A DNA stretch of 64,000 bases from Apoderus coryli (taxonomy: Eukaryota > Arthropoda > Insecta > Coleoptera > Attelabidae): positions 1,550,001 through 1,614,000 of the forward strand of contig OU452204.1 of assembly GCA_911728435.2 (NCBI GenBank), read 5' to 3'. Both the position numbers and the translations under genes were made by a program. This document shows positions 591-47,696 of the stretch, one piece after another. The notes beneath the pieces were generated by a model. It was not told the origin of the DNA, did no database searches, and worked only from the letters and a program-made list of their open reading frames with translations. The stretch's first letter is position 1. Every line of letters begins with the position of its first letter.

Positions 591-1161
591 TACAGGGTGT
601 CCCAAATATAAGTAATGAACCATAGTTGTGTTTTTTTTAAATGGAATGCCCTGTATATGAATATATTTTTAGATTCCCCGTTCAAAATAAACCTAAGTTT
701 CACTAAAGTACATCTCACCTAAACCTGACAGTTTTTTAAATATTTAAATTTTTATAAAAATGTACATAATATGAATGAACAAATTCACACCTATTTGTTT
801 GTTCTTTTTAAGCCAGTCTGGGCTGATAAATATACCCACTCATCACTTGTTACGCCAAATATAAAAAACCCGCAATACTAAATACAGGGTGTCCAATAAT
901 ATAATTTATATGAACGTAAAGTTTAATTCTAAATAACTTGTTTATTTCAAATGGAACACCCAGTATATGAGGTCAAAATTAGATGCATAAAGTAATTATC
1001 TGTCAAATATTATAATATGGATAACTTTTGACGTTTTTGTGGAAAATGCACATATTCATGATATTAGGGGAATTTGAAATTGAATCTCTTAGTTTCATGT
1101 AGACCACCATGTATTTGATGATGCAAAAATTAAAGTTAAATTAAAGTTTTCTTATAGATAT

Positions 1162-2345: not shown

Positions 2346-3383
2346 ATTTTGTACATGGGCCAGGAACAAAATCATCGCAAATGAAAACTTTTTTAATAGA
2401 GGAGATGAAGAACCAAATAAATGAAGCGTTTAGAAGCGTTACACCAGGTTAAAGTTGTTGAAGGATTTAAGAAAAGGATTCATATGTCCAATCATTTTGA
2501 ACATTTATTATAAAATTTATGAGTTTTTATGTAGGTATATCTTGTTATTTAATTTAAGTGAAAAATGCATTTATTTATTATGTTATTGTTTAAATTATGG
2601 TTTGTCAAATTCTCATGACCGACTTGACAAATATAATTTTAAAAAATTCTTCCTATTACTACCAATATGTGCTTTTTTCATAAATTAAAAAATATACATA
2701 TCTATAGGAAAACCTTATAGTGATCAATAGATAATTAATTTCATCATCATCAAATACAGGGTGGTCTACATGAAATTAACAGGTTCAATTAAAAATTCGC
2801 ATAGTATTATGAATACGTGCATTTTCCACGAAAACGTCAAGAGTTATCCATAGGAAAGTATTATAATATTTGACAGAGAATTACTCTGTGCATCTAATTT
2901 TTACCTCATATACCGGGTGTTCCATTTGAAATAAACAAGTTATTTAGAATTAAACTTTACGTTCATATAAGTTATATTATTGGACATCCTGTATTTAGTA
3001 TTGGGGATGTTTTTATATTTGGCGTAACAAGTGATGATGCCTAGACTGGCTTAAAAAGAATAAACAAATAGGTGTGAATTTTTTCATTCAAATTATGTCT
3101 ATATTTTTATTAAAATTTAAATATTTAAAAAACTGTCAGGTAGATGTGCTTTAATGAAAGTTAGGTTTATTTTGAACGGGGAATCTAAAAATTTATTCAT
3201 ATACAGGGCATTCCATTTAAAAAACACAACTATGGTTAAGTTCTTATATTTGGGACACCCTGTATAGACTCACAATATTTTTAAAATGTAGCCCTAAATC
3301 ATTTTTATCGAACCCATGAATAAAACTTTAAGGAAATTAAATAGTTTAGCCACAGTATTCCGTGTAGTATGGCGTGAATTGGG

Positions 3384-3460
3384 TCACAATGCCTGCCGAT
3401 CACCACTGATGAGTTGTGGATCAACGAAAGGGCCCGTCTGGTGAATGCATGATGGTGTGA
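3384..3460 (+). ncRNA. hammerhead ribozyme, copy 1 (stem III mutated)
   Basis: The core CTGATGA (3406-3412) is followed by stem-loop II GTTGTGGATCAAC, then GAAA (3426-3429), stem III GGGCCC and the GTC cleavage triplet (3436-3438). Helix I pairs TCACCA before the core with TGGTGA after the cleavage site (6 bp), with outer pairing of TCACA.. to ..TGTGA. In stem III the second position is G instead of the C seen in copy 2, which breaks one pair. Activity may therefore be reduced. Confidence 0.7.
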
Positions 3461-3682
3461 ACCTAATTTCCAACATAACTAAAAGTTTTGTTACTTTATG
3501 TAACAAGCAATTCACAAATCCTCATAGGATATGATGGAGTTTTTGCTTCTCGTCCGGCCATCGTTTGTGAACTGTGTTTCACCGGGCATATTGCCTACTC
3601 ACACTAGATGTCGCCACAAACATCTTGTTGTCAGTCATCTCTCGTGCTAGTATAAGCTCTTTGTAAATGTTGGAAATTTGGG

Positions 3683-3759
3683 TCACACTGCCTGACGATC
3701 ACCGCTGATGAGTTGTGGATCAACGAAACGGCCCGTCTGGTGAAAGCATCGTAGTGTGA
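3683..3759 (+). ncRNA. hammerhead ribozyme, copy 2 (canonical)
   Basis: All invariant hammerhead positions are present: CTGATGA (3705-3711), stem II GTTG/CAAC with loop TGGAT, GAAA (3725-3728), stem III ACGG/CCGT closed by a single C, and cleavage triplet GTC (3735-3737). Helix I pairs TCACCG with TGGTGA (five Watson-Crick pairs plus U-G) and extends through an internal loop to TCACACT/AGTGTGA. This is a type I layout (helix I open-ended) with a very short stem III, as in retrozymes and Penelope-like elements, which often cleave best as dimers. Confidence 0.8.
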
Positions 3760-4019
3760 AACAAATTTCCAACATAACTAAGTCTTGTTACTTTATGTAA
3801 CAAGCAATTCATAAATAAAGCCTCCCGCCAGGGAATTCGGGCGTATCTAGTTTTGGCAATAGGATTTAATGGAGTTGTTACTTCTTGTTCGTTTGCGAAC
3901 TGATTGAGATGGATTTTGACGCACTGAAATTATTACTTCTTCAAGCGTTTGTTGGGTTCGAACAGAGTATAGAGATTTTTTCCAGTAGTCGAGAATCCTA
4001 TCACCTCTAACTCGTTTAT

Positions 4020-4898
4020 TTATTTCAAGCAACTAAGGTGCTCCACACGCCACGCTTTGTGTGGAACCTTTTCATCGCTACTTGGTTTGGGTGTATGTTT
4101 ACGGCTTATATGCAGCATCAGATCAGCATCTGTTTTGCTCTTGTACGAACAGGCATGGCAAGCATACTCTCGTGATTCGATGCGACCATGTACTTCAAGA
4201 TCCGGTTTAGTTGGTAACCTGCAACTGCATTGATCACATGGAAAATCAGTAATGTCCCCATGTTCATTTATAATATGTTGCTCAAGAGAAGCAGCCAAGC
4301 TAGCAGAGTAAGGACAATAAGTACACTTATGTCTGCCGTAGCACTTGTAGCCCTCTATCTTAAAATGTTCATCAAGTACATGATCTATTAATTTAATTTT
4401 TGCATGATCTCTAGCTTTTTTGTTCTGACATATGTCACATTTATGGTGACACTTATACCTTAAATGTTTCAGAACCTCTTTTCGGGAGTAAGCACGCTTA
4501 AGACACGTTTTACATATGTATCTATATCGCTGTTGCTTCGACGTTAATATCTCTTGCTTATGACCTGCTATATGTGATTCATATACCCACAGGAATTTTG
4601 TGGTCAAGTGACATTGGATACAACAATACTTTGAGTTTTTTGTTTGAATTGTGGAATCATTAGATGAATTGTTAACTATTTTGATACAATGTTTTTTAAC
4701 TAATTGACTAGCTGGATTAACACACTGATCTATTTTCCGTTTTATTGTACAATTTGTAGGTTGTAGACTAGAATAACTCTGTCCCTCTTCTTTTACGCCA
4801 TTACTGCTTACTGTTTTATAGGTAATGATAGCTAACATACTATTAATGTGGTCAAAGCAATCTGTGCAAATTACTGGATCTATGCTAACTGTTATGTC
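4020..4898 (-). CDS. ZAD zinc-finger gene, terminal exon
   Basis: Opens after a pyrimidine-rich TTTCAG acceptor (4904-4899) and runs 292 codons to TAA at 4022-4020. It starts with the second C-x2-C of ZAD2 (CTDC), then a ~75-residue polar linker, then C2H2 fingers with approximate residue spans 232-252, 268-290, 293-317, 331-352, 360-376 (degenerate second histidine) and 386-407. Several fingers are linked without the usual TGEKP. A TTG-started frame at 4913 reads through the splice site and is not the true start. Confidence 0.8.
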   Translation of the reverse strand, partial: DITVSIDPVICTDCFDHINSMLAIITYKTVSSNGVKEEGQSYSSLQPTNCTIKRKIDQCVNPASQLVKKHCIKIVNNSSNDSTIQTKNSKYCCIQCHLTTKFLWVYESHIAGHKQEILTSKQQRYRYICKTCLKRAYSRKEVLKHLRYKCHHKCDICQNKKARDHAKIKLIDHVLDEHFKIEGYKCYGRHKCTYCPYSASLAASLEQHIINEHGDITDFPCDQCSCRLPTKPDLEVHGRIESREYACHACSYKSKTDADLMLHISRKHTPKPSSDEKVPHKAWRVEHLSCLK

Positions 4899-7800
4899 CT
4901 GAAACAAAGACAATTAGTTGTTTATCTAATAAGTGTAAAGAATGGTACTTTTTCGCATGCGGTGACAGCTGACTGAACAATTCGTAACGAAGTCGTTCAG
5001 CTGTCAAGGTCGAAGAAGACATTTTCCACCACAAATGTTATATTTTTTCTCTAACGATTATCAACAGTGTATATGCACACAAAATGGAAAAACAAAATAA
5101 AGATTTTAATATAATTATTAAGCGATACACAGAGCCTGTAAAAGGTTCGTTCCAACCCCCTTAAAAACCGTGCAATGTAGGGTCACACTCATGTGCAATA
5201 CGTTAAATGTGTTCCAACGAATCTGATAGTTCACTGTACGATTTCGTTAACGTTAAACCACACCTGTGACTGTTCAAGAACCGGTTTCAGCACCGTCATT
5301 TCGATCACAGGTGAAAAGCGAATACCGTTTTGACTGATCCATGACTGACATGCGCAATGATTTTGACAAAGTGCAAATTATTTTTGACGAATTATGACTT
5401 GGATCAAGTGCTAAATAGAATTGCAGAAATTCCTCAATATTTTTTATGTAATTTGATAGCATAAACCAAAATACCTCCCTAGCGGTATCTTCACCCACAG
5501 CAGTACGCGGGTGACATTGAAGCAAAATGGCCCAATTGGAACTTAGATTTTCTTTTGGGAAAATACATGGAAAATGTCTGGGAATGATATACAACGGACT
5601 AGGACCTTTACTAAACGTCGCGTCGCACAGTGGTACAAAAGTCTAAATAGCTGGCCAAAACCATTAATAAAGTTTTTCTAAAAATGCGAATTTTTACAAT
5701 TACATAAGTTCGGCAACACACTAGAGTATCGCGTAGCGTTAAACATACGTCTCAAGGTCAACGACCTGCCGCGATACGCAGTACGAAAGTGACTCTCGAA
5801 CAAGTGGGATCGTTAAATACGCACGCGCTTAAAAATAGGCTTTAGTTTGCGAGTACGTAAAAAAGTGTAGATTTAATTCATTTTTAATAAAACAAAATGG
5901 CTGAAGTAGGGAAAGGTACGTAGTATTCGAATATGCAAGTAATAATAATTAATTATTTATTACTAATTAATAATTTAAGGACAAAATACAAGAAAAAGTT
6001 AAACCTTTCAAGGGGGAAATTCCACGGAATTCCGCAACAAATCTTGTTAGATATTGATTATTGTTGTCTACTTATTCAAGAAAAGTGACATTTGTCTGCC
6101 ACTAGCTGCCACTCTGCCTTTGGAATTTTTTTTAAAACCTAAATGCACGAAATATCGGAGCATTTCCGCTCTTTTTTTAATAAAGGGCCACTTGATCAAA
6201 ATATCAAGGACATATGTGACATTGTGCAAAACGAAATTAATAGAAAATATAAGTGCAATTTTGAATTAACAGAGTGATAAAACTAATTTACGTAATACCG
6301 TAAAACAATAAAAATGAAACATGAAGTTTGCAGGAAGTGCACCGAACCGAGGATAAGTTAGGCAAATTTCAAAACTGGCTAAACGAAATGACTATTGTGA
6401 TCAATGACGATAAGCAGAAACCAATTTCGAGTACTCCTAGAAGTGGTTGTCCTTCATGCTCTTTTTCCGAATCTAGTGAGAGAACAATGCGGAGAAAAAC
6501 TGAGAAAATTCGTAAAGTAAGAAGTAGCAATGAACTAACGTATGCAACACATATGAAGTTAAGAGCTGAGGGAAAATTGGATTCTGCATATGTTTTACAT
6601 GAAATTACGTTTGTTACACCTACTAAACCGTCCAAGTACAGAAAATCAATTAATGCGGTTCAAGAGAGAACACTTTCTGAGGATGAAGCTTTTTCATTGC
6701 TAATTGAAACAAGACTTTCTAAAAATCAATATCAATTGGTTCGACAAACCAGCCGTGGAAAGAATTGTAAACTTTTTCCTCATTACTTTTACCTATAGGA
6801 GCATGATATATCATTTGAAAAAGTATAGTTCACACTAAGGTCAATTGCGATTACCTACCCTGTAACTAGGCAAAAATATAAAAATCTTTGGGTAATATAT
6901 TATATATAAGTAACCAAATTTTTAGGATGATCGTAAATATGTCTCTTAATAATCGTCGAACCCAACATCAACCATAAATCACCCTGTATATTTTGCCCTC
7001 TCTATTATTATTTTTCAGTTTTGAAATGATTTTTGTTTGTAATTAAATTTAAGTTGTTTAAGCAAGTTTTCTAAAAGTCTCCAGCCATTTCCGCCAAGTC
7101 CGCCATTTTGTTTGTTTTAAATTCACCACTTTTTTTGTAATCTGTAATTATAAAAGCCTATTATACAAAATCTTGTTTAAATCAAGCTGAAATTCAGATT
7201 TTGGCCAGCTTTTCGGGATTTTGTACCACTGTGCGTCGGTTCCGTTGAAAATCGATATTCTGCGTCAGGTTGCACAACTGATTGTGTGAAGAACCCTTAA
7301 AATTAGATATAGTATCATATTTCGTTATTATTGGATTAACCATTATAAAACTATCGTAAAATTATATCTTCCAATCTAGATGGCTGCTCACCCGCTGTTA
7401 AATTACTTATTTTTTAGGCTTACCACTAAACACACTAAACATTATACAAAAAAATCGGGGTGTCACCCCAAAACTTTCCCGACAAATTATAATATAATCA
7501 AAAATATATGACGTGCGTAACGAAACCGAATTTTAATAATATTTTCTTAAATTATACGAAAAACGTAAACAAGAATTTTGAAACTTTTGTAAACTGTTTT
7601 TATTTATTACGGTTAAGCACGACCAGTATAAAATATCACAATACCTTAATCCCAAAAGCGCTAACGCATCACACAATCTCAGCTTTATCGTGGTGAACAA
7701 ATGTTTAGACAAATATAACATTTTGAGTTTGAAATAACTTTTCCTTAATATGTCCGAGAGAAAAGTATCGTCATTTAAATGAAATAATAGACTTACCACC

Positions 7801-15641: not shown

Positions 15642-15655
15642 AAGTGATAAATGTA

Positions 15656-16969
15656 ATGTCAATCAATAATCTTATCGAAAATTTAGAAAATCTCTCATTG
15701 CAAACTCCTTCAACTGACTCTGCTATTTACGACCAAAACTTAGAAGTCAATATTAAAGATAATTTGAATGAAATTATTGCTTTAGATAATAGTAATAGCA
15801 AAATGGCAAATACTTTTAAACCTGAATATCTAAACTGTGTTCCTACCTTCGACGGTAACGCTAATGATTTAAACAGATATTTATCTACTTGCCAAACTTT
15901 GATTGATTCTTTTTACGACATAGCTAACCCAAATAATTTTCACAATATATACCTATTAAATTCTTTAATTGGCAAACTTAGTGGTCATGCTAAATTAGTT
16001 GTAAACATCCAAAATGTTAACACCTGGAATGAACTTAAGGACACCTTAAGACGTAATTTTGCCGATCAAAGAGACGAAACTTGTTTAAATAGGGATCTGG
16101 TTATGATGAGACAAGCACCTAATGAAAAACCTAGTCAATTTTACGACAGGATTTTACACATACTAAATCTTTTATGTTCTTTTGTTGATGCGCACGAATT
16201 ATCAGTTGCTGGTAAAACATTAAAAAGAAATTTGTATAACGACCTTGCCTTGAAAACATTCCTATCGGGATTAAAAGAGCCTCTGGGAACTACAATCAGA
16301 TGTATGCGTCCCGCTACTCTAATGCAAGCACTACAATTTGTTTCACAAGAGGATAATATTCATTATTTTCAAAACCAAAATAAACCTAATATATCCTTTA
16401 AAAATAATACTCAAAATTTTAGGCCCATGCAACAAAACCTATATACGCGACCCTTTCAAACTAACTTTTCACAAAGACCTTTTAATTATCAAACTTCAAA
16501 CAATGCTTTTCGAACGAATTTTTCTCCACAGTCGGTTAATATTCGACCTCGTTTTAACGGAACAAGATTCCCCACAAACTCGCAAGTTTTTGGCAGACCA
16601 AATAACAATGGAACTAATGTTTTTAAACCTCAAAATGTAAAACAACCTACACCCACACCCATGTCTGGCATAGAAACTTCTCAATTTAAACCCTTTACAA
16701 ATCAACCTAATAATAATTATAACCCACCTAAATTCACTTTTGAAGAACTATACAATGTAGAATCACATGACCTACCTCAACAAGACTATTATTACGATGA
16801 GAGCCAGTACAATGAACCTAACCAATATCAAGATTTCTACTCTGCATATCCTAACCAATACGAACACTCCTGCGATGACCTACCTCAACAAGAACAACCA
16901 GTTAATAATCAGCCTGTAGAAAATGCTTCAAATTTTCGACAGGACGGCCAGGAAACCCCGAACGGTTAG
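15656..16969 (+). CDS. gag: errantivirus Gag
   Basis: 437 codons from the ATG at 15656; the frame also extends to a GTG at 15644, which is not needed. It encodes the structural polyprotein that packages element RNA. An N-terminal ~230 residues are capsid-like (a W-N-E-L-K-D-T-L-R-R-N-F-A-D-Q-R segment typical of retrotransposon Gag). A long Asn/Gln/Pro/Phe-rich C-terminal tail has repeated N-x-R-P and FRT/NFS motifs. No CCHC zinc knuckle is present, as is usual in errantiviruses. The end overlaps the pol frame by 61 nt. Confidence 0.92.
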   Translation: MSINNLIENLENLSLQTPSTDSAIYDQNLEVNIKDNLNEIIALDNSNSKMANTFKPEYLNCVPTFDGNANDLNRYLSTCQTLIDSFYDIANPNNFHNIYLLNSLIGKLSGHAKLVVNIQNVNTWNELKDTLRRNFADQRDETCLNRDLVMMRQAPNEKPSQFYDRILHILNLLCSFVDAHELSVAGKTLKRNLYNDLALKTFLSGLKEPLGTTIRCMRPATLMQALQFVSQEDNIHYFQNQNKPNISFKNNTQNFRPMQQNLYTRPFQTNFSQRPFNYQTSNNAFRTNFSPQSVNIRPRFNGTRFPTNSQVFGRPNNNGTNVFKPQNVKQPTPTPMSGIETSQFKPFTNQPNNNYNPPKFTFEELYNVESHDLPQQDYYYDESQYNEPNQYQDFYSAYPNQYEHSCDDLPQQEQPVNNQPVENASNFRQDGQETPNG

Positions 16970-19900
16970 AAACACCTACAATATCTTTTAATATGTCCAA
17001 CCCTAACGAATTATCATACATTATATTTCCAGAAAATAACCTTAAAATTTTGATAGATTCCGGTTCAAGTAATTCATTTTTGGACCCGATTCTTGCCAAA
17101 AAGTTATTTCCGAATAAAATAATAGACGATCCATTCGTTGTGTCTACAGTATATCAGAAATCAGCTCATAGACATAGTGTTCTTATGCCTGCTTCAAAAT
17201 TATTTAATTTACCCGAAAATAAAGATTTAAAATTCTACCTATTTAAATTTCATAATATTTTTGATGGACTTTTAGGTTTAGATAATTTAAAATTATTGCA
17301 AGCAACTTTAGACTACAATAACAACTATTTAGTTACACCGTACACGCATATTAAGTTACAATTCCAGAAAACAAGATGTGAACTAAACAATATAACGATC
17401 CCACCGCGTGTCGAACAAGTAATTATGATTAGGACTTCCATAAAAAATGGTGATATTATAATACCACATCAAAAATTTCATAACTGTGAAATCCCAGAAT
17501 CACTATCAACTGCAAAAAAAGGCTTTGCACTCACAACTATTTTAAACAATACCTGTGAATCCATTACGTTAGACCTATCAGAACCCATAGGCGTAGAACA
17601 ATTCAATTCTAAGGTAATGTCGGAAATAAATTTAAACAATATTGACGAATCCCCAAAATTTTCAAATAAACTTGACCTTTCCAAATTTCGTACAGACCAT
17701 CTAAATGAAGAAGAAAAAATAAAAATTTTAAATTTAATTAGAAATTATTCAGACATTTTTTATAATGAAAATGATCAACTGACGTTTACAAGTAAAATCA
17801 AACATCGCATAAGAACTACGGACGAAATCCCCGTTTATACCAAATCATACCGTTACCCAACTATCCATAAGGAAGAAGTCCAAAAACAAATAACTAAAAT
17901 GTTAGACCAACAAATCATCCAACCAAGCACCTCGCCTTGGAGTTCACCAATCTGGGTAGTACCCAAAAAGGCAGACGCTTCCGGCCAACAAAAATGGCGT
18001 GTTGTAGTAGACTTCAGAGGACTTAATGCTAAAACCTTAGACGATAGGTACCCACTGCCTAATATCACGGATATACTGGACAAATTGGGCAAATGCCAAT
18101 ATTTTACCACATTGGATCTGGCTAGTGGCTTCCACCAGATACAAATGCACGAACAAGATATCGAAAAAACTGCATTTAGTACAGAACGTGGACATTATGA
18201 ATTTTTAAGAATGCCATTTGGGCTGAAGAACGCTCCAGCGACCTTCCAAAGAATTATGGATAATATCCTTCGTGGCATCCAAAATGAGAAATGCCTGGTG
18301 TACCTGGATGACATAATTTTGTTCTCCACCTCACTCCAAGAGCATTTAGACGCGCTCAAAGACGTTTTCCAAAGACTTCGAAACTCCAATTTCAAGATAC
18401 AGTTGGACAAAAGCGAATTCTTACGTAAAGAAGTTGCCTATTTTGGACATATTGTAAAACCAGACGGCGTTAGGCCAAACCCTGACAAAATAATAAGTAT
18501 AAAGAAATATCCCATTCCAAAAACTACCAAACAAATTAAAGGATTCCTCGGATTGCTCGGATACTACAGGAGATTCATTAAGGACTTTGCTAAGATCACC
18601 AAACCACTAACGAAATGTCTAAAAAAGGGAGCAACAATTAAACACGACAAAGAATTTGTGGAGTGCTTTGAACTTTGTAAGAACTTACTGACAAACGAAC
18701 CTATCTTACAATATCCGGACTTCTCACAGCCATTCAACCTTACAACAGATGCAAGCAATGTAGCTTTAGGCGCAATTCTTTCACAAGGTCCCATAGGACA
18801 AGACCTCCCGGTAGCATACGCCTCACGTACACTCAACGACTCAGAAAGAAACTATTCCACCACAGAAAAGGAACTTTTAGCTTTGGTATGGGCAACCAAA
18901 TATTTTAGGCCTTACATTTTTGGAAGGAAATTAAATTTAATTACCGACCATAAACCCCTCCAATGGCTTTTCTCGGCTAAAGACCTCGGATCGAAATTGT
19001 TAAGATGGCGCATAAAACTAGATGAATATTTCCCCGAAATAAAGTACAAAAAAGGTAGATTAAATACTAATGCTGACGCGTTGTCACGCATCGAAATTCA
19101 CACTAAAGAAACGCACGAAAAATTTTCCCTAAAAGATTATATCGAAGACTTTAATAAACAACTAGAAAACGAAACAGCTGACCACAACACCGACCAAATT
19201 TCAACTATTGCCCAAGTGGACGACACTGACAACACTCGATACAACGACATAGAACTCCCAGTACCTAATGATGATGCAGCGAACAACGATAACATGACTA
19301 TACATACAAACGTAAACGAAGACCCCATAGTCGACATTCCAATACATGATATTCCTGTAAACTACGGTGCGAATCAAATAATTATACAACAAGTACTACA
19401 TTCCCCTGCAAAACCAAAATTGACAATCTTATTTGAAAAGAAACGCCGCTATATCATCCAAATTTCCAAAAGTAATTTTGATGTCGATATTTTAAATACA
19501 TTTAAAGAAATTATCGTGCCTGATAAGCAATATTATCTTTATTTTGAAAAATCAGATATTTACGAACCATTTTGTGAAGTTATAAGAAAAACATTCAAAT
19601 GGCCTTCACTAAAGTTAAGACGTTGTTTAAAGAAATTAATAGACGTTACCGATAAAACTGAAATTTGTGACATCATAAAAATGTATCATGAATCAAAAAA
19701 TAATCATAGAGGCATCGACGAAACCCTCGAAAGAATTAAACAAAAATATTATTGGCCAAACCAAAAAGACTCTGTACAAACCTATATAAACAATTGTGAA
19801 ATTTGTCAAAGAAGTAAATACGAACGTCACCCTATAAATATGCAAATGAACGTCACACCTACTGCTTCCCGTCCTTTTCAAATAATTCATATAGACGTAT

Positions 19901-20682
19901 ACACTTTAGAAAAAACCAAATTCCTTACAATAATCGACAGCTTTTCAAAATATGCGCAAGCATATGGCCTTCAGTCACTTGCAGCTTCAGAAATTGTTGA
20001 CAAACTATTAATTTTCTTTTCTCATCATAGTGTCCCAGAACAAATTATATTAGATAATGGAACTGAATTCAAAAATACGGTTGTAACTGAAATGCTAAAC
20101 CTCCATAAAATTAAAATTCATTTTTGCTCTCCGTATCACTCACAATCTAACGGGCAAGTTGAAAGACTCCATTCCACTTTAAGCGAACACATTCGCCTCC
20201 TTAATAATCAAGAGTTTTCAAAATCTCCAATAAGTCAAAAAATGGTTTACGCCATTTTAGCATATAATAACTCAATACATTCTGTTACGAAATTTAAACC
20301 TATAGACGTTATTAACGGCCATATTTCTGATAATGATCCATTCGATATAAAATTAGACCAAATGTTACTAACTGACTATATTAATAATCACAAAGAAAAG
20401 GCTCGTCTTTTATACTCTAATATAAATGAAAAACTAATTGGAAATAAAGAGAAGGTTATTTCTAAAATTAACGAAAACCGAGATAAACCCGATATTTTCA
20501 CAGAAAACCAAAAAGTCTACCCTAAGAAACACATAAGACAAAAACTTACAGACAAATTCCTAAAACCCACCAAAATCCTCTCAGTAAATGAAAACCGTAA
20601 AACCGTTTCTACAGAATCACAAACTAAAGTTCATATGGACAATTTAAAACGCCCCCTCAGGCAAACATACAGCTTTGACTAA
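16909..20682 (+). CDS. pol: errantivirus Pol polyprotein
   Basis: The frame is open from 16909 in the gag overlap; the first ATG is at 16993 (1229 codons from there). From that ATG: aspartic protease ILIDSGSSNSF at residues ~16-26; RT with TTLDLASGFHQI near 373 and the catalytic CLVYLDDIILFS near 433-444; RNase H with LTTDASNVALGAIL near 581; then integrase. The integrase has an HHCC finger (H..H near 897-903, C-E-I-C near 935) and a DD35E core with Asp near 967 and 1021 and Glu near 1057. All catalytic residues are present with no stop. Pol is most likely made as Gag-Pol by -1 frameshifting. Confidence 0.94.
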   Translation, partial: SACRKCFKFSTGRPGNPERLETPTISFNMSNPNELSYIIFPENNLKILIDSGSSNSFLDPILAKKLFPNKIIDDPFVVSTVYQKSAHRHSVLMPASKLFNLPENKDLKFYLFKFHNIFDGLLGLDNLKLLQATLDYNNNYLVTPYTHIKLQFQKTRCELNNITIPPRVEQVIMIRTSIKNGDIIIPHQKFHNCEIPESLSTAKKGFALTTILNNTCESITLDLSEPIGVEQFNSKVMSEINLNNIDESPKFSNKLDLSKFRTDHLNEEEKIKILNLIRNYSDIFYNENDQLTFTSKIKHRIRTTDEIPVYTKSYRYPTIHKEEVQKQITKMLDQQIIQPSTSPWSSPIWVVPKKADASGQQKWRVVVDFRGLNAKTLDDRYPLPNITDILDKLGKCQYFTTLDLASGFHQIQMHEQDIEKTAFSTERGHYEFLRMPFGLKNAPATFQRIMDNILRGIQNEKCLVYLDDIILFSTSLQEHLDALKDVFQRLRNSNFKIQLDKSEFLRKEVAYFGHIVKPDGVRPNPDKIISIKKYPIPKTTKQIKGFLGLLGYYRRFIKDFAKITKPLTKCLKKGATIKHDKEFVECFELCKNLLTNEPILQYPDFSQPFNLTTDASNVALGAILSQGPIGQDLPVAYASRTLNDSERNYSTTEKELLALVWATKYFRPYIFGRKLNLITDHKPLQWLFSAKDLGSKLLRWRIKLDEYFPEIKYKKGRLNTNADALSRIEIHTKETHEKFSLKDYIEDFNKQLENETADHNTDQISTIAQVDDTDNTRYNDIELPVPNDDAANNDNMTIHTNVNEDPIVDIPIHDIPVNYGANQIIIQQVLHSPAKPKLTILFEKKRRYIIQISKSNFDVDILNTFKEIIVPDKQYYLYFEKSDIYEPFCEVIRKTFKWPSLKLRRCLKKLIDVTDKTEICDIIKMYHESKNNHRGIDETLERIKQKYYWPNQKDSVQTYINNCEICQRSKYERHPINMQMNVTPTASRPFQIIHIDVYTLEKTKFLTIIDSFSKYAQAYGLQSLAASEIVDKLLIFFSHHSVPEQIILDNGTEFKNTVVTEMLNLHKIKIHFCSPYHSQSNGQVERLHSTLSEHIRLLNNQEFSKSPISQKMVYAILAYNNSIHSVTKFKPIDVINGHISDNDPFDIKLDQMLLTDYINNHKEKARLLYSNINEKLIGNKEKVISKINENRDKPDIFTENQKVYPKKHIRQKLTDKFLKPTKILSVNENRKTVSTESQTKVHMDNLKRPLRQTYSFD
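16930..16936 (+). promoter_or_regulatory. candidate -1 frameshift site
   Basis: AAATTTT lies in the gag/pol overlap (16909-16969), in the phase A AAT TTT that fits the X XXY YYZ slippery rule for the gag frame. Pol is in the -1 frame. A downstream pseudoknot was not established. Confidence 0.5.
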
Positions 20683-20702
20683 AAACCAAAATTTTATTTC
20701 AG

Positions 20703-22383
20703 GCTCGCCGCCACAATTTACGCAGAAGACAAAATAGTACTTAGGCAACTGGACGATAACCCTGGCATACTACCTCTTAAACTTGGACAAGCAAAACTCG
20801 TACAATACACCTTTACTCTAATACATTACTTCGACTTAAATCCCATTATAACGGAGGTTAACAAATTACATTTCAGAACCAAAAACATAACCAATTCTTT
20901 AAATAAACATAATGAATATTTTAACGAAACATCTAACTATATAAAAATTCTTAATTTAATTCAAGAAAGAGTTGAAACCAAAATCAAAAATTTGATACCT
21001 CACCCCCAAAGGACCAAAAGAGGACTTATTAATGCAGCAGGCTCAGTTTTCAAACTCATAACTGGTAACCTCGATGCGTCGGATGGCGAACGCTACGAAA
21101 AACTCATCAATAATTTAGAAACCAATCAAAATAACTTGGCAACAATTATCAAAAACCAGAATTCAATTTCAACAAGCATAATCCAGAATTTCAACAATAC
21201 TGTTCAACAAATTAATCAAAATGAAAAGCTAATAGAAAAAAGAATTAATCAAATTGGGCTAATTGTGCAAAGAACTACAATTCCCGAAAACTATAATTTT
21301 ATTAAAGACATTATCAATCAAATAATCAGTTTCTATGAAATAATTGACTCTATGCTCCAAGACTTAGAAAATTCAATAACTTTTGCTAGACTCAAAACTA
21401 TGCACCCTAGCATAATTAAAACAAATAACCTTTTAACCGAACTAAAGAAGTTGGAACACATTGTAGGTCCTAATTCATTGCCTTTACCTATTAACTTAGA
21501 AAACATATTTTTGTTCGAAAAACTCATTGAAATAGATTGCTTTATTTATAAAAATAAAATCACCTTTTTATTACACATTCCTGTAACATATCCAAATAAA
21601 TTCGACTATTACCATTTATATTCTCTACCAGTCAAACATCAGAGTCTGTTTAAGGTAGTCATTCCGCGTAATACATATCTAGTAAAAAGTCAGTTACACT
21701 ATTCACATTTTGGAACGCCTTGTACAATCGTACGTCCACAAACATTCCTCTGCTACAAACCAATGCTGAAAGAAATCGAAGAAAACAGCCCTTGTGAAGT
21801 ACAACTACTAGGATCGACCAAAAACACCCCCACCTGTCAACAAACAGATATCACAGCAACAAAACCAATCATAAATCAACTAGACCAATCAGATAAATGG
21901 ATTTTAGTACTACCAAAGGAAACTATCGTACAATTAAAATGCCATTTTCAAGAAGAAAACCAAAGGTTGTTAGGAAGTTACTTAACGACAATACCAACTG
22001 GGTGCCAAATAAAGACCGAAGATAAAATAATAATCAATAACCAAAAGGAAACCAATTCCAGTCAACAGCCAATCATTTTCCCAGATTTTAACGAAACCAA
22101 AGAGTACCTTCCACTCCTTAATTTAAGTATCCATCTGCAAGAGATAAATTTAGACAGTCTACACGAGTTACAAAATAAAATCACGAAAAATCAGCCATAT
22201 ACAATTTTTGACAGCATTTCAAAATTTCCGAGTCTATGGACAATTTTGATCTATATGTTAGTGTTTGGAATATGCTCATATATGATATATAAGTGCATTA
22301 TAGGACGAAAACTCAATGGAAAGAAGACCAACTTGGAAACTCAGACATACCAACATATCCAACTACCCCTAAACCAGGTGTAG
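20703..22383 (+). CDS. env: errantivirus Env (spliced; main exon)
   Basis: An open frame follows the TTTATTTCAG acceptor (20701-20702) and runs to TAG at 22381-22383. With the leader exon at 15611-15639 it totals 570 codons including the stop. It is a membrane glycoprotein related to baculovirus F proteins. Visible features: a furin-type site RTKR followed by GLIN and a conserved K-x3-G-x-L-D segment near 21008-21080; a coiled-coil-like Asn/Gln-rich region; several N-glycosylation sites; paired cysteines; and one membrane segment near 22225-22300 with a short cytoplasmic tail. A TTG-initiated start at 20992 would remove the signal peptide and is unlikely. The frame is undamaged. Whether it is infectious cannot be told from sequence. 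Confidence 0.85.
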
Positions 22384-30629: not shown

Positions 30630-31382
30630 ATGAATACGAAGTTGTGTTCATGTTGCTCCAGGGTGGTCGATGGTCATGTTGCTCTCACTTGCTCTATTTG
30701 TATTAAGGTGTTTGCGAATAACTGTGTTGGAGTTTCAACATCAGAAGTTCGAATTATTAACTCCAAGAAAAGTATATCCTGGAGCTGCCGTCAGTGTGAA
30801 GCTCTTGGTAATAACATTAATTCTTTGAAATCTATTATTGTGTCTTTGCAAAATGACATCAGGGAGTTGAAGTCTGCTGTGTCGCAATGCAAATCTGATC
30901 TTGCCATTTCTGAGGATGTGTTCGAGGAGATGCTTGGAGAGATGCAGGAACGGGATAGAAGAAAGTCTAACATAATCATTTACGGCTTAAAAGAACAGCC
31001 GAACAATCTCGGTGCGGGTGATCGAGTTCTTCGTGAGACGGCGGAGGTGCATGAGATTATTGAATATATATCACCATCAGTGTCTGTTGAGCACATTGAT
31101 GTTCGTAGATTGGGAAAGTTCAGTGTCGAGAACAATAGGCCGCGCCTGTTAAGAGTACGACTAGAGAATGACATATGTGTTAGAGATATTCGTAAAAAAT
31201 CTACCAAATTGAAGGGTTCTGACTCCTTTAAACATTTGTCCGTATCCTCCGACAGAACTCCTAGGCAACTGGCCAACTATAGATCTTTAAAACAAGAATT
31301 GGAAAAAAGAATATCAAAAGGCGAGAACAACATTGGTATAAGGCACGTTCGTGGAATTACAAAGATCGTTTCGTTAAACTAG
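30630..31382 (+). CDS. LINE ORF1 protein (PHD-like finger)
   Basis: Begins at ATG 30630; the upstream TTG at 30588 is not needed. Cysteines in C-S-C-C..C-S-I-C-I-K..N-N-C-V-G..C-R-Q-C form a PHD-like finger at residues ~5-55. A coiled-coil-like stretch follows (INSLKSIIVSLQNDIRELKS). An RRM-like region has KSNIIIYGLKEQ and VRRLGK..RPRLLRVRL, and then a C-terminal domain. This architecture is common in CR1/Jockey-group ORF1 proteins, which bind element RNA. The frame is uninterrupted, although ORF2 is damaged. Confidence 0.8.
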   Translation: MNTKLCSCCSRVVDGHVALTCSICIKVFANNCVGVSTSEVRIINSKKSISWSCRQCEALGNNINSLKSIIVSLQNDIRELKSAVSQCKSDLAISEDVFEEMLGEMQERDRRKSNIIIYGLKEQPNNLGAGDRVLRETAEVHEIIEYISPSVSVEHIDVRRLGKFSVENNRPRLLRVRLENDICVRDIRKKSTKLKGSDSFKHLSVSSDRTPRQLANYRSLKQELEKRISKGENNIGIRHVRGITKIVSLN

Positions 31383-31385
31383 ATC

Positions 31386-32740
31386 AGCCCAATTGCAGTC
31401 ATCCCTTCACTGACGCAGGTCAATTTAGTTGTTATTACCAAAATGTCCGAGGATTAAAATCGAAAACTGATACATCTTACGATCCTGTTCCTAGTGGAAA
31501 CTTTCATCTTATCGTCTTTACTGAGACTTGGCTTGATGATGGAGTTATGAACGGTGAACTATTTTCGGACGTATATGATGTTCATCGAAGTGACAGGGGT
31601 GGCGGTGTTTTGATAGCATCAAAAAGTGATTCTTGTTTTAGTACAAACATTAATTTGCCCTTTTCATCATATATTTCTCCACCTATAGATGTATTGTGTT
31701 GTAAATTAGTTATAGATTACTTTGTTTTTTATGCATTTTCTATTTATATGCCACCAACAGTATCAATAGATGAATTTGAAGTGTTTTTTGATGCCTTAAT
31801 GTTATGTGATATTATACTTAAGAATAAAGTCATTATGCTGGGAGATTTTAATGCACCGGGTTTTATTCTTGGGTCACATACGGATAAAAAAAACACGACT
31901 ATTAATCACTTTTGTGAAGTTACTGGTTTAAAACAGGTCAGTAAAGTTAAGAATAGGTTAGGCCGACAATTGGACTTAATATTTACAAATATTGACTGCA
32001 CAGTTTCTGAAAACACCTTTCCGTTTGTGCCTATTGATGTCTACCACCCAGCTATTGAAGTGAATCTGTTAACTACCAATGCCCGTTCGAAACAGTTAAA
32101 AATTGACGGATCTTTGCGCGAAACATTCAATTTCCGGAAAGCCTGTATTGTATGAGAGAATTCTTAATGCTACTTGGAGGCGTGTTTTACTTGAGACTAC
32201 AGCTGAGAGTTCCTGTAAGGTTTCGTATGACGAACTGTCAAATATCTTTCAAACATGCATTCCATTTAAGCTAGAGAGAAAGCGGCGATTTCCATGTTGA
32301 TACGATAACTCTATAATTCAGAATATTTATAAAAAGGAAAAAGCTTACTATAGCTATAAAAAATACCGCTCTGAGTATTATAGATCTCGATACGACCATT
32401 TGAGGCATTTAATTAAGCAGCGGACTAGGGATGCTTACCGGCGATACTTAGTGAATGTGGAACGGGAGATTCAGAGCGATCCAACTAGATTTTGGTCCCA
32501 TATACAAGCAAAAAAAGGAACCTCTCAAGTCCCCGGAATGATGACTGACGGGGATAAGGTATTCCGGGGACATAAAGAAATAGTCACGGCTTTTGCGGAG
32601 TATTTTGAGAGTGTGTACGTACGTGGAAGTTACGTGATTAACTTCCACGTACGTATATATGTACTGATGGCCTACTTCCTAACAATAATTTAATTACCAT
32701 CAATTGTATAACGAAGGAACAGATTATCAGGGCAAGTAAA
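31386..32740 (+). pseudogene. LINE ORF2, endonuclease and linker
   Basis: An apurinic-type endonuclease is recognisable from YYQNVRGLKSK, FTETWLDDGV, SDRGGGVLI, MLGDFNAPGF and R-Q-L-D-L-I-F-T-N to D-V-Y-H-P-A-I. A frameshift near 32140 and a stop near 32298 break the linker, which then reads DPTRFWSHIQAKKG and FAEYFESVYV. A 40-bp hairpin (32616-32655) adds non-homologous codons. The frame is cut by the repeat inserted at 32751. Confidence 0.8.
32616..32655. repeat. perfect 17-bp-arm hairpin in LINE ORF2
   Basis: Arms TACGTACGTGGAAGTTA (32616-32632) and its exact reverse complement (32639-32655) are separated by 6 nt. It looks like a local snap-back or template-switch scar. Confidence 0.85.
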
Positions 32741-46507: not shown

Positions 46508-47488
46508 TTAAAGTCTTCCTCCTTTAGCTATCCGATAGGAGAACGACCTTTTAAACAATTCCGTAGAATGGGCAGGAATAGATATTGCATCTCTACGACG
46601 AATATTAATACTGTGAATGTCAGTTCTAAATCTCAGTTTTCTATATAAGTAAGGTGGAGTTTTGTGTCGCAGTATGCTGTAATAACGGCAGGCTGAGTGC
46701 AGATATCTTCTGTTCTCCATATTGAGCCAGTTCACGTAGGAGAGAGTGTGAATAATTCTTTGAGATCTTCTTACACCAAAGATCAGTCTCAAGCATGAAT
46801 TCTGCCGTCTCTGCACCCGCAATTTCATTGCATTTGTAAGGCAAGGAGAGTAAACTATATCACAATAATTTAGGTAGGAGAGAACAAGAGTTTCACATAA
46901 CTTTGTTTTTAATTTTCTAGTGAGAACGTGGCGATGTTGAAAAATCAATATCAGATTCATAAATCCCATCCGTGTGCATCGATTCACATGATCAACAAAT
47001 CTAAATTCTGTGTCCAAGAGCAATCCGAGGGTCTTTACGGTAGTCTTAAAGTGCAAAGGAGTACCTTCAATGACAAGTGAGGCCCGATATTCACGTAAAA
47101 ACTGAGATCTGTCATTTCGCCGTCCAAACACAATAGCACCCGATTTATTAGGATTAAGTTTCAAACAATGGTCCCTGGAAAAATCAGACAAGGCCTGCAA
47201 GTCCGCATTGATTGCAGATACCGCCTGTAAGGCATCGCTTGGCTGAAAGGAGAGACACAACTGCGTATCGTCAGCATAGTAATGCTGGTTACATGAAACA
47301 AAGGCAGCCGGAAAATTAGATGTGTAAGCAATAAACAGCAGCAGCTGTGATAAAACAGAACCTTGTGGAACACCTCTAACTAATGGTTTATAATTCGAAA
47401 CACTTCCTCGACAGTTCACCGCCTGATGTCTGGAAGGAACAGAATTAAACAACATAAGTCTGACTGTAGAAATGTCAATCAATTTCAA
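46508..47488 (-). pseudogene. LINE RT fragment (5'-truncated)
   Basis: 326 open codons: VRGVPQGSVLSQLLL, HYYADDTQLCLSF (YADD catalytic pair intact), LKLNPNKSGAIVFGRR, V-K-T-L-G-L-L-L-D, YLNYCDIVYSPCL and Q-R-R-Q-N-S-C-L-R. This is the second half of an RT and the thumb/C-terminal region of a CR1/L2-Jockey-like LINE. It starts without an ATG-led domain and lacks the palm A motif, endonuclease and ORF1. The longest uninterrupted LINE frame in the window, it abuts a Penelope-like fragment on the opposite strand. Confidence 0.8.
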
Positions 47489-47696
47489 ACTGAATGAGCA
47501 CTACTTTGACAATGGACATCGTTTCAATTTTCACGATATCAAAATTCTGGATAAAGATATAAATTTTAAAAAAGGCAACATCAGTGAGATGATACATATT
47601 ACACTTCATGAAACAGTTAATTGGAGTACTGGGACACTTAATTTAAGTAACTTGTATATTAACTTAAGCACTTGGTCGATTTCATATCCTAACTAG
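47472..47696 (+). pseudogene. Penelope-like element GIY-YIG endonuclease tail
   Basis: Residues include NEHYFDNGHRFNFHDIKIL, ISEMIHITLHETVN and LNLSNLYINLS. These match the C-terminal half of the GIY-YIG domain in Penelope-like retroelements (E-H..GH-x-F-x-F-x-x-x-K-I-L..E-x-I-x-I..V-N..L-S-x-x-Y). The GIY-YIG core, RT and N-terminus are missing. It supports the presence of Penelope-type elements, the class known to carry hammerhead ribozymes. Confidence 0.6.

What the first reader, a model, noticed from the sequence alone, without database searches (positions are those of the whole stretch)
3372..3905. Tandem retrozyme with canonical hammerhead ribozymes
Two type I hammerheads 299 nt apart define a complete monomer (3439-3737). 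Copy 2 has every invariant base and an extended helix I; copy 1 differs by one stem III base. This is the architecture of retrozymes, which yield circular RNAs, and no protein gene is involved. A third diverged unit follows.
Basis: partly seen in the sequence, partly recalled or inferred. Interest (0 to 1): 0.9.

Follow-up and report, generated by a model that had tools for sequence, protein, structure and literature searches.

The report
Hammerhead retrozyme relic, Penelope-type insertion scars
The window holds a decayed copy of a non-coding jumping element whose RNA carries a self-cutting hammerhead ribozyme; younger copies elsewhere in the same genome bear insertion scars like those of resident Penelope-type retrotransposons, which points to the machinery that may move such elements.

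Summary
Rfam scores only copy 2, below its cut-off (26.9 vs 34 bits). The window copy is an old, truncated relic: family units are 336-337 nt (66 of 72 spacings between 325 and 345), the 299-nt spacing reflects about 38 lost nt seen in none of 11 other old loci, and no third hammerhead follows.

Sixty loci (39 + 20 + window) show the family. Of 37 head-to-head insertions (minus units, then plus units), 31 start one arm near unit position 115 and the other near 269. Many sit in ~12-bp target duplications. Within a young insertion, units of both arms are nearly identical, as if one circular RNA had been copied repeatedly. Both start sites lie in one predicted loop of the circle. Resident Penelope-like elements (PLEs) leave the same footprint.

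Best reading: an animal non-LTR retrozyme moved by PLE machinery, both target strands priming on one circRNA. Cleavage, circles and the partner protein are untested.

The parts
3376..3902 (+). Retrozyme relic, about 1.5 units, old subfamily
   Evidence: Aligns to the 336-nt family consensus from about u307 through two ribozymes to about u191-u215, 83% identity; no target duplication found
3384..3460 (+). Hammerhead copy 1 with outer helix I; predicted cut after 3438
   Evidence: Core 3401-3443 read from the sequence; stem III C to G change; no Rfam hammerhead hit
3683..3759 (+). Hammerhead copy 2 with outer helix I; predicted cut after 3737
   Evidence: Rfam Hammerhead_1 at 3699-3743, 26.9 bits, below the cut-off of 34; core 3700-3742 complete
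3439..3737 (+). Cut-to-cut interval of 299 nt; lacks about 38 nt of the native unit, near 3515-3524
   Evidence: Alignment to consensus and to the second unit
3805..3820 (+). Counterpart of start site A (u104-u119)
   Evidence: Position by alignment; site defined from outer ends of younger copies
3618..3645 (+). Counterpart of start site B (u252-u279)
   Evidence: Position by alignment; site defined from outer ends of younger copies

Best explanation
A relic of an animal non-LTR retrozyme family. Tandem units are transcribed; hammerheads cut after GUC into 336-nt monomers (perhaps as dimers, since the young helix III ACGGCCGU is self-complementary); a ligase closes them into circles. A PLE-type reverse transcriptase with GIY-YIG endonuclease nicks both strands of an AT-rich target about 12 bp apart. 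The two DNA 3' ends prime on the circle, one at site A (u~115), the other at site B (u~269). Each cDNA runs round the circle for part of a turn up to several turns, stops at a variable point, and the two are joined in the middle, leaving head-to-head arrays inside a ~12-bp duplication. Shown: the units, ribozyme conservation, duplications, uninserted relatives, the A/B ends, near-identity of units across both arms, and the same footprint in resident PLEs. Inferred: cleavage, circularisation, and that a PLE protein does the work.
For: Hammerhead: and pair counts with one two-sided change between subfamilies. Head-to-head arrays with A/B ends in 31 of 37 bidirectional insertions. Junction matches of 10 nt or more in 19 of 40 loci against 14 of 1560 cross-pairs and 13 of 20 against 2 of 380 in a second set. 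Relatives without the insertion align across the junction for L016, L018, L019 and L058, of 26 tried. Variants fixed in all copies of both arms: L012 G89A 7 of 7 (fixed in no other of 23 insertions), L019 C128T 6 of 6, and the lineage variant T92C in all copies of L016, L022, L024 and L025. Sites A and B in the same loop in 599 of 1000 sampled circular folds against 4.6% background. PLEs: 19 of 19 neighbouring GIY-YIG pairs within 8 kb are minus-then-plus; 4 of 4 examined insertions of one PLE family have one plain end, one end with a tail of about 34 nt and a 12-14 nt duplication; L069 the same by eye. Literature: a purified PLE extends both strands from two internal start sites (PMC11167929, parts 1-2 of 4 read).
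Against: No sequence homology between retrozyme and the PLE loci looked at, L068, L069 and L076. Rfam listed no hammerhead in L068 or L069 at E up to 1; those were found by pattern. In PMC11167929 the start sites did not differ between the two strands and did not match the cut DNA, whereas here A and B are kept apart and about 4 nt of the duplication also match the unit end on each side. The same paper found that ribozyme mutants still inserted in vitro. L046 is A/A (with palindromic flanks); L014, L057 and L063 have one non-standard end; L009 units are heterogeneous. No RNA evidence.
Confidence: 0.8

Rival explanations
1. Retrozyme moved by PLE machinery, but the template is a linear multimeric transcript rather than a circle.
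For: Also gives tandem cDNA. PMC11167929 reports unprocessed RNA as the dominant substrate in vitro. L009 is heterogeneous between units.
Against: Near-identity of up to 11 units in both arms, including variants fixed in all copies, would need a homogeneous multimer each time.
Confidence: 0.2
2. Retrozyme moved by a LINE through twin priming.
For: Twin priming gives head-to-head insertions (general knowledge); LINE pieces occur in the window.
Against: Two fixed internal start sites, near-constant 12-13 bp duplications (20 of 26) and the plain/tail rule match the resident PLEs. The planned LINE control did not complete, so this is not excluded.
Confidence: 0.1
3. Head-to-head structure arises by self-priming (snap-back) of one cDNA, as PMC3846280 (passages) suggests for rotifer PLEs.
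For: L015 inner ends meet at the same position (u31/u31) and L021 at u317/u327.
Against: Most other inner ends differ widely (e.g. L012 211/135, L018 311/204, L025 322/102), and both outer ends are at fixed, different start sites.
Confidence: 0.08
4. Ordinary satellite or foldback DNA repeat with a chance or vestigial hammerhead.
For: Tandem, non-coding, inverted arrangement.
Against: Target duplications, uninserted relatives, dispersed near-identical insertions, variable centres, no shared terminal inverted repeat between ends A and B, compensated stem II.
Confidence: 0.02

Closest known systems
Metazoan non-LTR retrozymes with type I hammerheads (Cervera and de la Pena 2020, PMC7229834: abstract, results part 1 of 3, discussion and passages seen)
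   Same: Type I hammerhead in non-coding tandem repeats of 150-450 bp, GC below 50%, duplications longer than 4 bp when present, no LTR
   Different: Head-to-head arrays with two fixed start sites and a PLE-like footprint were not described in the parts read; circRNA is shown there, not here
Penelope-like elements (PMC3846280 passages; PMC11167929 parts 1-2 of 4)
   Same: Head-to-head copies, plain end and tail end, 8-10 bp (rotifer) or 12-14 bp (here) duplications, AT-rich targets, two internal start sites
   Different: Retrozyme has no protein; its start sites are 154 nt apart rather than about 34; no sequence homology found
Plant LTR retrozymes (PMC7761336 passages)
   Same: Hammerhead-bounded non-coding retroelement proposed to spread through circRNA
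   Different: Type III hammerheads, LTRs, PBS, PPT and 4-bp duplications there

Membership tests
Metazoan non-LTR retrozyme | Type I hammerhead in each unit | tested here: met
   (sub-threshold Rfam); 40 distinct rows kept of 51 distinct (134 matches), nine lost to trimming and two chimeric rows dropped
Metazoan non-LTR retrozyme | Non-coding tandem units of a few hundred nt, GC below 50% | tested here: met
   336-nt unit, GC 0.44, longest stop-free stretch 50 codons
Metazoan non-LTR retrozyme | Target duplication longer than 4 bp | tested here: met
   for the family; not met by the window copy
Metazoan non-LTR retrozyme | No LTR, primer binding site or polypurine tract | tested here: inconclusive
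   Arrays abut the flanks with no LTR seen; only one 12-mer primer-site check was run
Metazoan non-LTR retrozyme | Self-cleavage and circular RNA | not testable with these tools
   Sequence only
Penelope-like element | Encodes PLE reverse transcriptase | tested here: not met
   No long frame in the unit
Works like a PLE insertion | Head-to-head, two alternative ends, ~12-bp duplication | tested here: met
   Retrozyme; PLE
Plant LTR retrozyme | Type III hammerhead, 4-bp duplications | tested here: not met
   Helix I is open, so type I; duplications 11-16 nt in 26 chosen loci

The most novel reading that the evidence does not exclude
One retrozyme circle serves as template for both strands of one target at once: a PLE enzyme, likely a dimer, holds the loop where sites A and B face each other, cuts a symmetric AAC-N12-GTT site, and extends each DNA end from its own start site, so that one strand gets A and the other B. 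The same rule would explain the plain-end/tail-end structure of PLEs themselves.
Probability: 0.5. Interest if true: 0.75.

Novelty: new member of a known kind. Interest (0 to 1): 0.58.

Why it matters
Which enzyme moves animal retrozymes is open: a 2020 review (PMC7761336, passages) names PLEs as likely candidates but says the repeats show no conserved motif from which the partner could be deduced. Here the insertion scars point to PLEs and give exact RNA positions and a target motif to test. Variants shared by every unit of both arms are genomic evidence that one small RNA sequence was copied several times from both sides of a target.

Tried and rejected
Rfam at gathering threshold gave nothing over the window. 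A separate mobile 299-nt monomer was rejected: none of 11 other old loci shows the deletion, though L030 has an overlapping 22-nt one. Homology between retrozyme and PLE loci was sought and not found. The many-copy GIY-YIG family sampled in L076 (1001 bases) showed no hammerhead core by pattern. Pol III A and B boxes by two simple patterns: none in the unit. microRNA-like Rfam hits on L068 and L069 look like artefacts of their inverted arms. PF26215 is not in the library. Two scripts failed and were repeated in corrected form (39 then 41; 70 then 71). The LINE control (PF14529) and the genome-wide hammerhead count (RF00163) did not complete.

Literature: head-to-head, two-start-site retrozyme insertions were not seen in the listings or in the parts of papers read; the library holds open-licence papers only.

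In mending it I corrected the variant claims (T92C and A314G are shared by several insertions, not private), stated the 325-345 selection behind the unit length, and added, the contrary PLE results and the rows dropped.

Full report
What was checked. Copy 2 has the full hammerhead core; copy 1 has a stem III change. Rfam's type I model finds copy 2 only, at 26.9 bits against a cut-off of 34, and nothing at gathering threshold over the window.

The family. The window lies in a 428-Mb genome. A DNA search with the window repeat returned 124 matches (5677 candidates, 40 scored), one with a younger unit 149 (1385 candidates, 40 scored), so copy numbers are lower bounds. I grouped matches by hand and fetched 39 loci as a first set and 20 of 22 new places as a second set. 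Of 72 ribozyme-to-ribozyme spacings between 325 and 345 nt, 54 are 336 and 12 are 337; other spacings exist (e.g. 314 in L030, 301 in L047).

The window copy. It aligns from about u307 to u191-u215 at 83% identity to the young consensus. Its two units are 90.4% identical over 187 columns, and the first lacks about 38 nt. The longest junction match is 4 nt. It belongs to an older subfamily with stem II GUUG/CAAC and helix III ACGGCCCGU; the young subfamily has GUCG/CGAC and ACGGCCGU.

The ribozyme. One search found 134 matches, 51 distinct; trimming kept 42, and two chimeric-junction rows were dropped, leaving 40. Helix I pairs hold in 37-39 of 40, helix II in 38-39, helix III in 36-40; stem II pair 3 is C-G in 23, U-A in 15, C-A in 1 and U-G in 1. 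This is one two-sided change separating two subfamilies. Energy models prefer another fold for the monomer (young -14.6 against -5.9 for the hammerhead); a double hammerhead of two strands scores -30.7, a two-strand alternative -36.7. So the models do not by themselves favour the hammerhead. Dimer action is reported for vertebrate retrozymes such as those of the axolotl (PMC7229834 abstract), and a paper on PLE hammerheads cleaving as dimers was seen only in a reference list.

Insertion anatomy. Arms diverge: minus-strand units, then plus-strand units, with a variable centre. Outer ends fall near u115 (A) or u269 (B). Of 60 loci, 37 are bidirectional. Of these, 31 are A/B: L009, L010, L012, L013, L015-L019, L021, L022, L024-L026, L029, L035, L039, L041, L044 (first set, 19) and L049-L052, L054, L056, L058, L059, L061, L062, L065, L067 (second set, 12). 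The other six are L014, L057 and L063 (one non-standard end), L027 and L032 (decayed), and L046 (A/A, with palindromic flanks). None is B/B. The remaining 23, the window included, are one-directional or decayed. Ends of L026 and L050 were judged by eye from the printed flanks, and for L056 a further fragment at 1595-2007 was set aside.

Duplications. Exact junction matches of at least 10 nt: 19 of 40 against 14 of 1560 cross-pairs, then 13 of 20 against 2 of 380. In 26 A/B loci chosen for clear duplications, the longest matches are 11 (1), 12 (13), 13 (7), 14 (4) and 16 (1) nt, 88% AT; they include about 4 nt on each side that also match the unit end. They sit in a symmetric site AAC-[12]-GTT: A at -3 in 23 of 26, A at -2 in 19, T at +2 in 17, T at +3 in 20; position -1 is A in 10 and C in 10, +1 is G in 11 and T in 9. 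Relatives without the insertion align across the junction for L016 (including two in the window, 764-1097 and 2771-3100), L018, L019 and L058, some with mismatches in the target; one relative of L018 (L076) lacks the target stretch.

One template per insertion. In 23 insertions examined, young ones show almost no variation between units. L012 carries G89A in 7 of 7 copies in both arms and is the only one fixed for it; L019 carries C128T in 6 of 6 (also seen in 1 of 3 units of L011); the lineage variant T92C is fixed in both arms of L016 (11), L022 (7), L024 (11) and L025 (5) and in L023 (3, one arm). Against: L016 C217A is in 10 of 11, and L009 and several older insertions are heterogeneous. 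A monomeric circle copied repeatedly from both target ends explains this most simply.

Start sites in the RNA. The circular fold of the young consensus has energy -110.6, z -5.4 against 100 dinucleotide shuffles. Sites A and B are unpaired with mean probability 0.82 and 0.91 against 0.39 overall, and lie in the same loop in 599 of 1000 samples against 4.6% background at that spacing. This is a prediction on one consensus.

Resident PLEs. GIY-YIG matches: 150 scored of 1260 candidates. All 19 neighbouring pairs within 8 kb are minus-then-plus; the other 112 matches are unpaired at that distance. L068 and L069 are head-to-head, with 2405-nt arms at 100% and 2126-nt arms at 99%. L068 encodes RVT_1 and GIY-YIG; L069's frame gave no Pfam match at 0.001, though its GIY-YIG was over the cut-off. 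Both show a minimal hammerhead core near the 3' end by pattern, but Rfam listed no hammerhead there at E up to 1. L069 shows the same by eye. Published work found two internal start sites bounding the tail and extension of both target strands, with no difference in start site between strands (PMC11167929, parts 1-2 of 4), and head-to-head copies with a tail on one end, read there as self-priming (PMC3846280, passages).

Verdict. An old, probably inactive retrozyme copy; a new family of a known kind; and an insertion footprint that ties such elements to PLE machinery. That footprint, not the window copy, is the interesting result.

Noticed in passing
window 15644-22383: Three adjacent long open frames with gag, pol (RT, RNase H, integrase) and Baculo_F-type envelope matches: an errantivirus-like Ty3/Gypsy element.
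   Followed up: no
window 31283-32155 and 46508-47500: LINE-type endonuclease and reverse transcriptase fragments; the second is just under the Pfam cut-off.
   Followed up: no
window 4020-4913: Zinc-finger-like open frame on the minus strand, judged by eye from the translation, just downstream of the relic.
   Followed up: no
window 764-1097 and 2771-3100: Two copies of a dispersed repeat in opposite orientation on either side of 1100-2770; both are uninserted relatives of the L016 target.
   Followed up: partly
L076 1-1001: A many-copy GIY-YIG family with short frames, followed by ~130-nt degenerate tandem repeats that are also the target of the L018 insertion.
   Followed up: partly
L046 1538-2709: Insertion whose flanks are also a near-perfect palindrome: a real inverted duplication or an assembly artefact.
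   Followed up: no
L009-L047 inner ends: Several arms end at u134-u138, just 3' of a predicted hairpin at u122-u135, as if reverse transcription stopped there.
   Followed up: no
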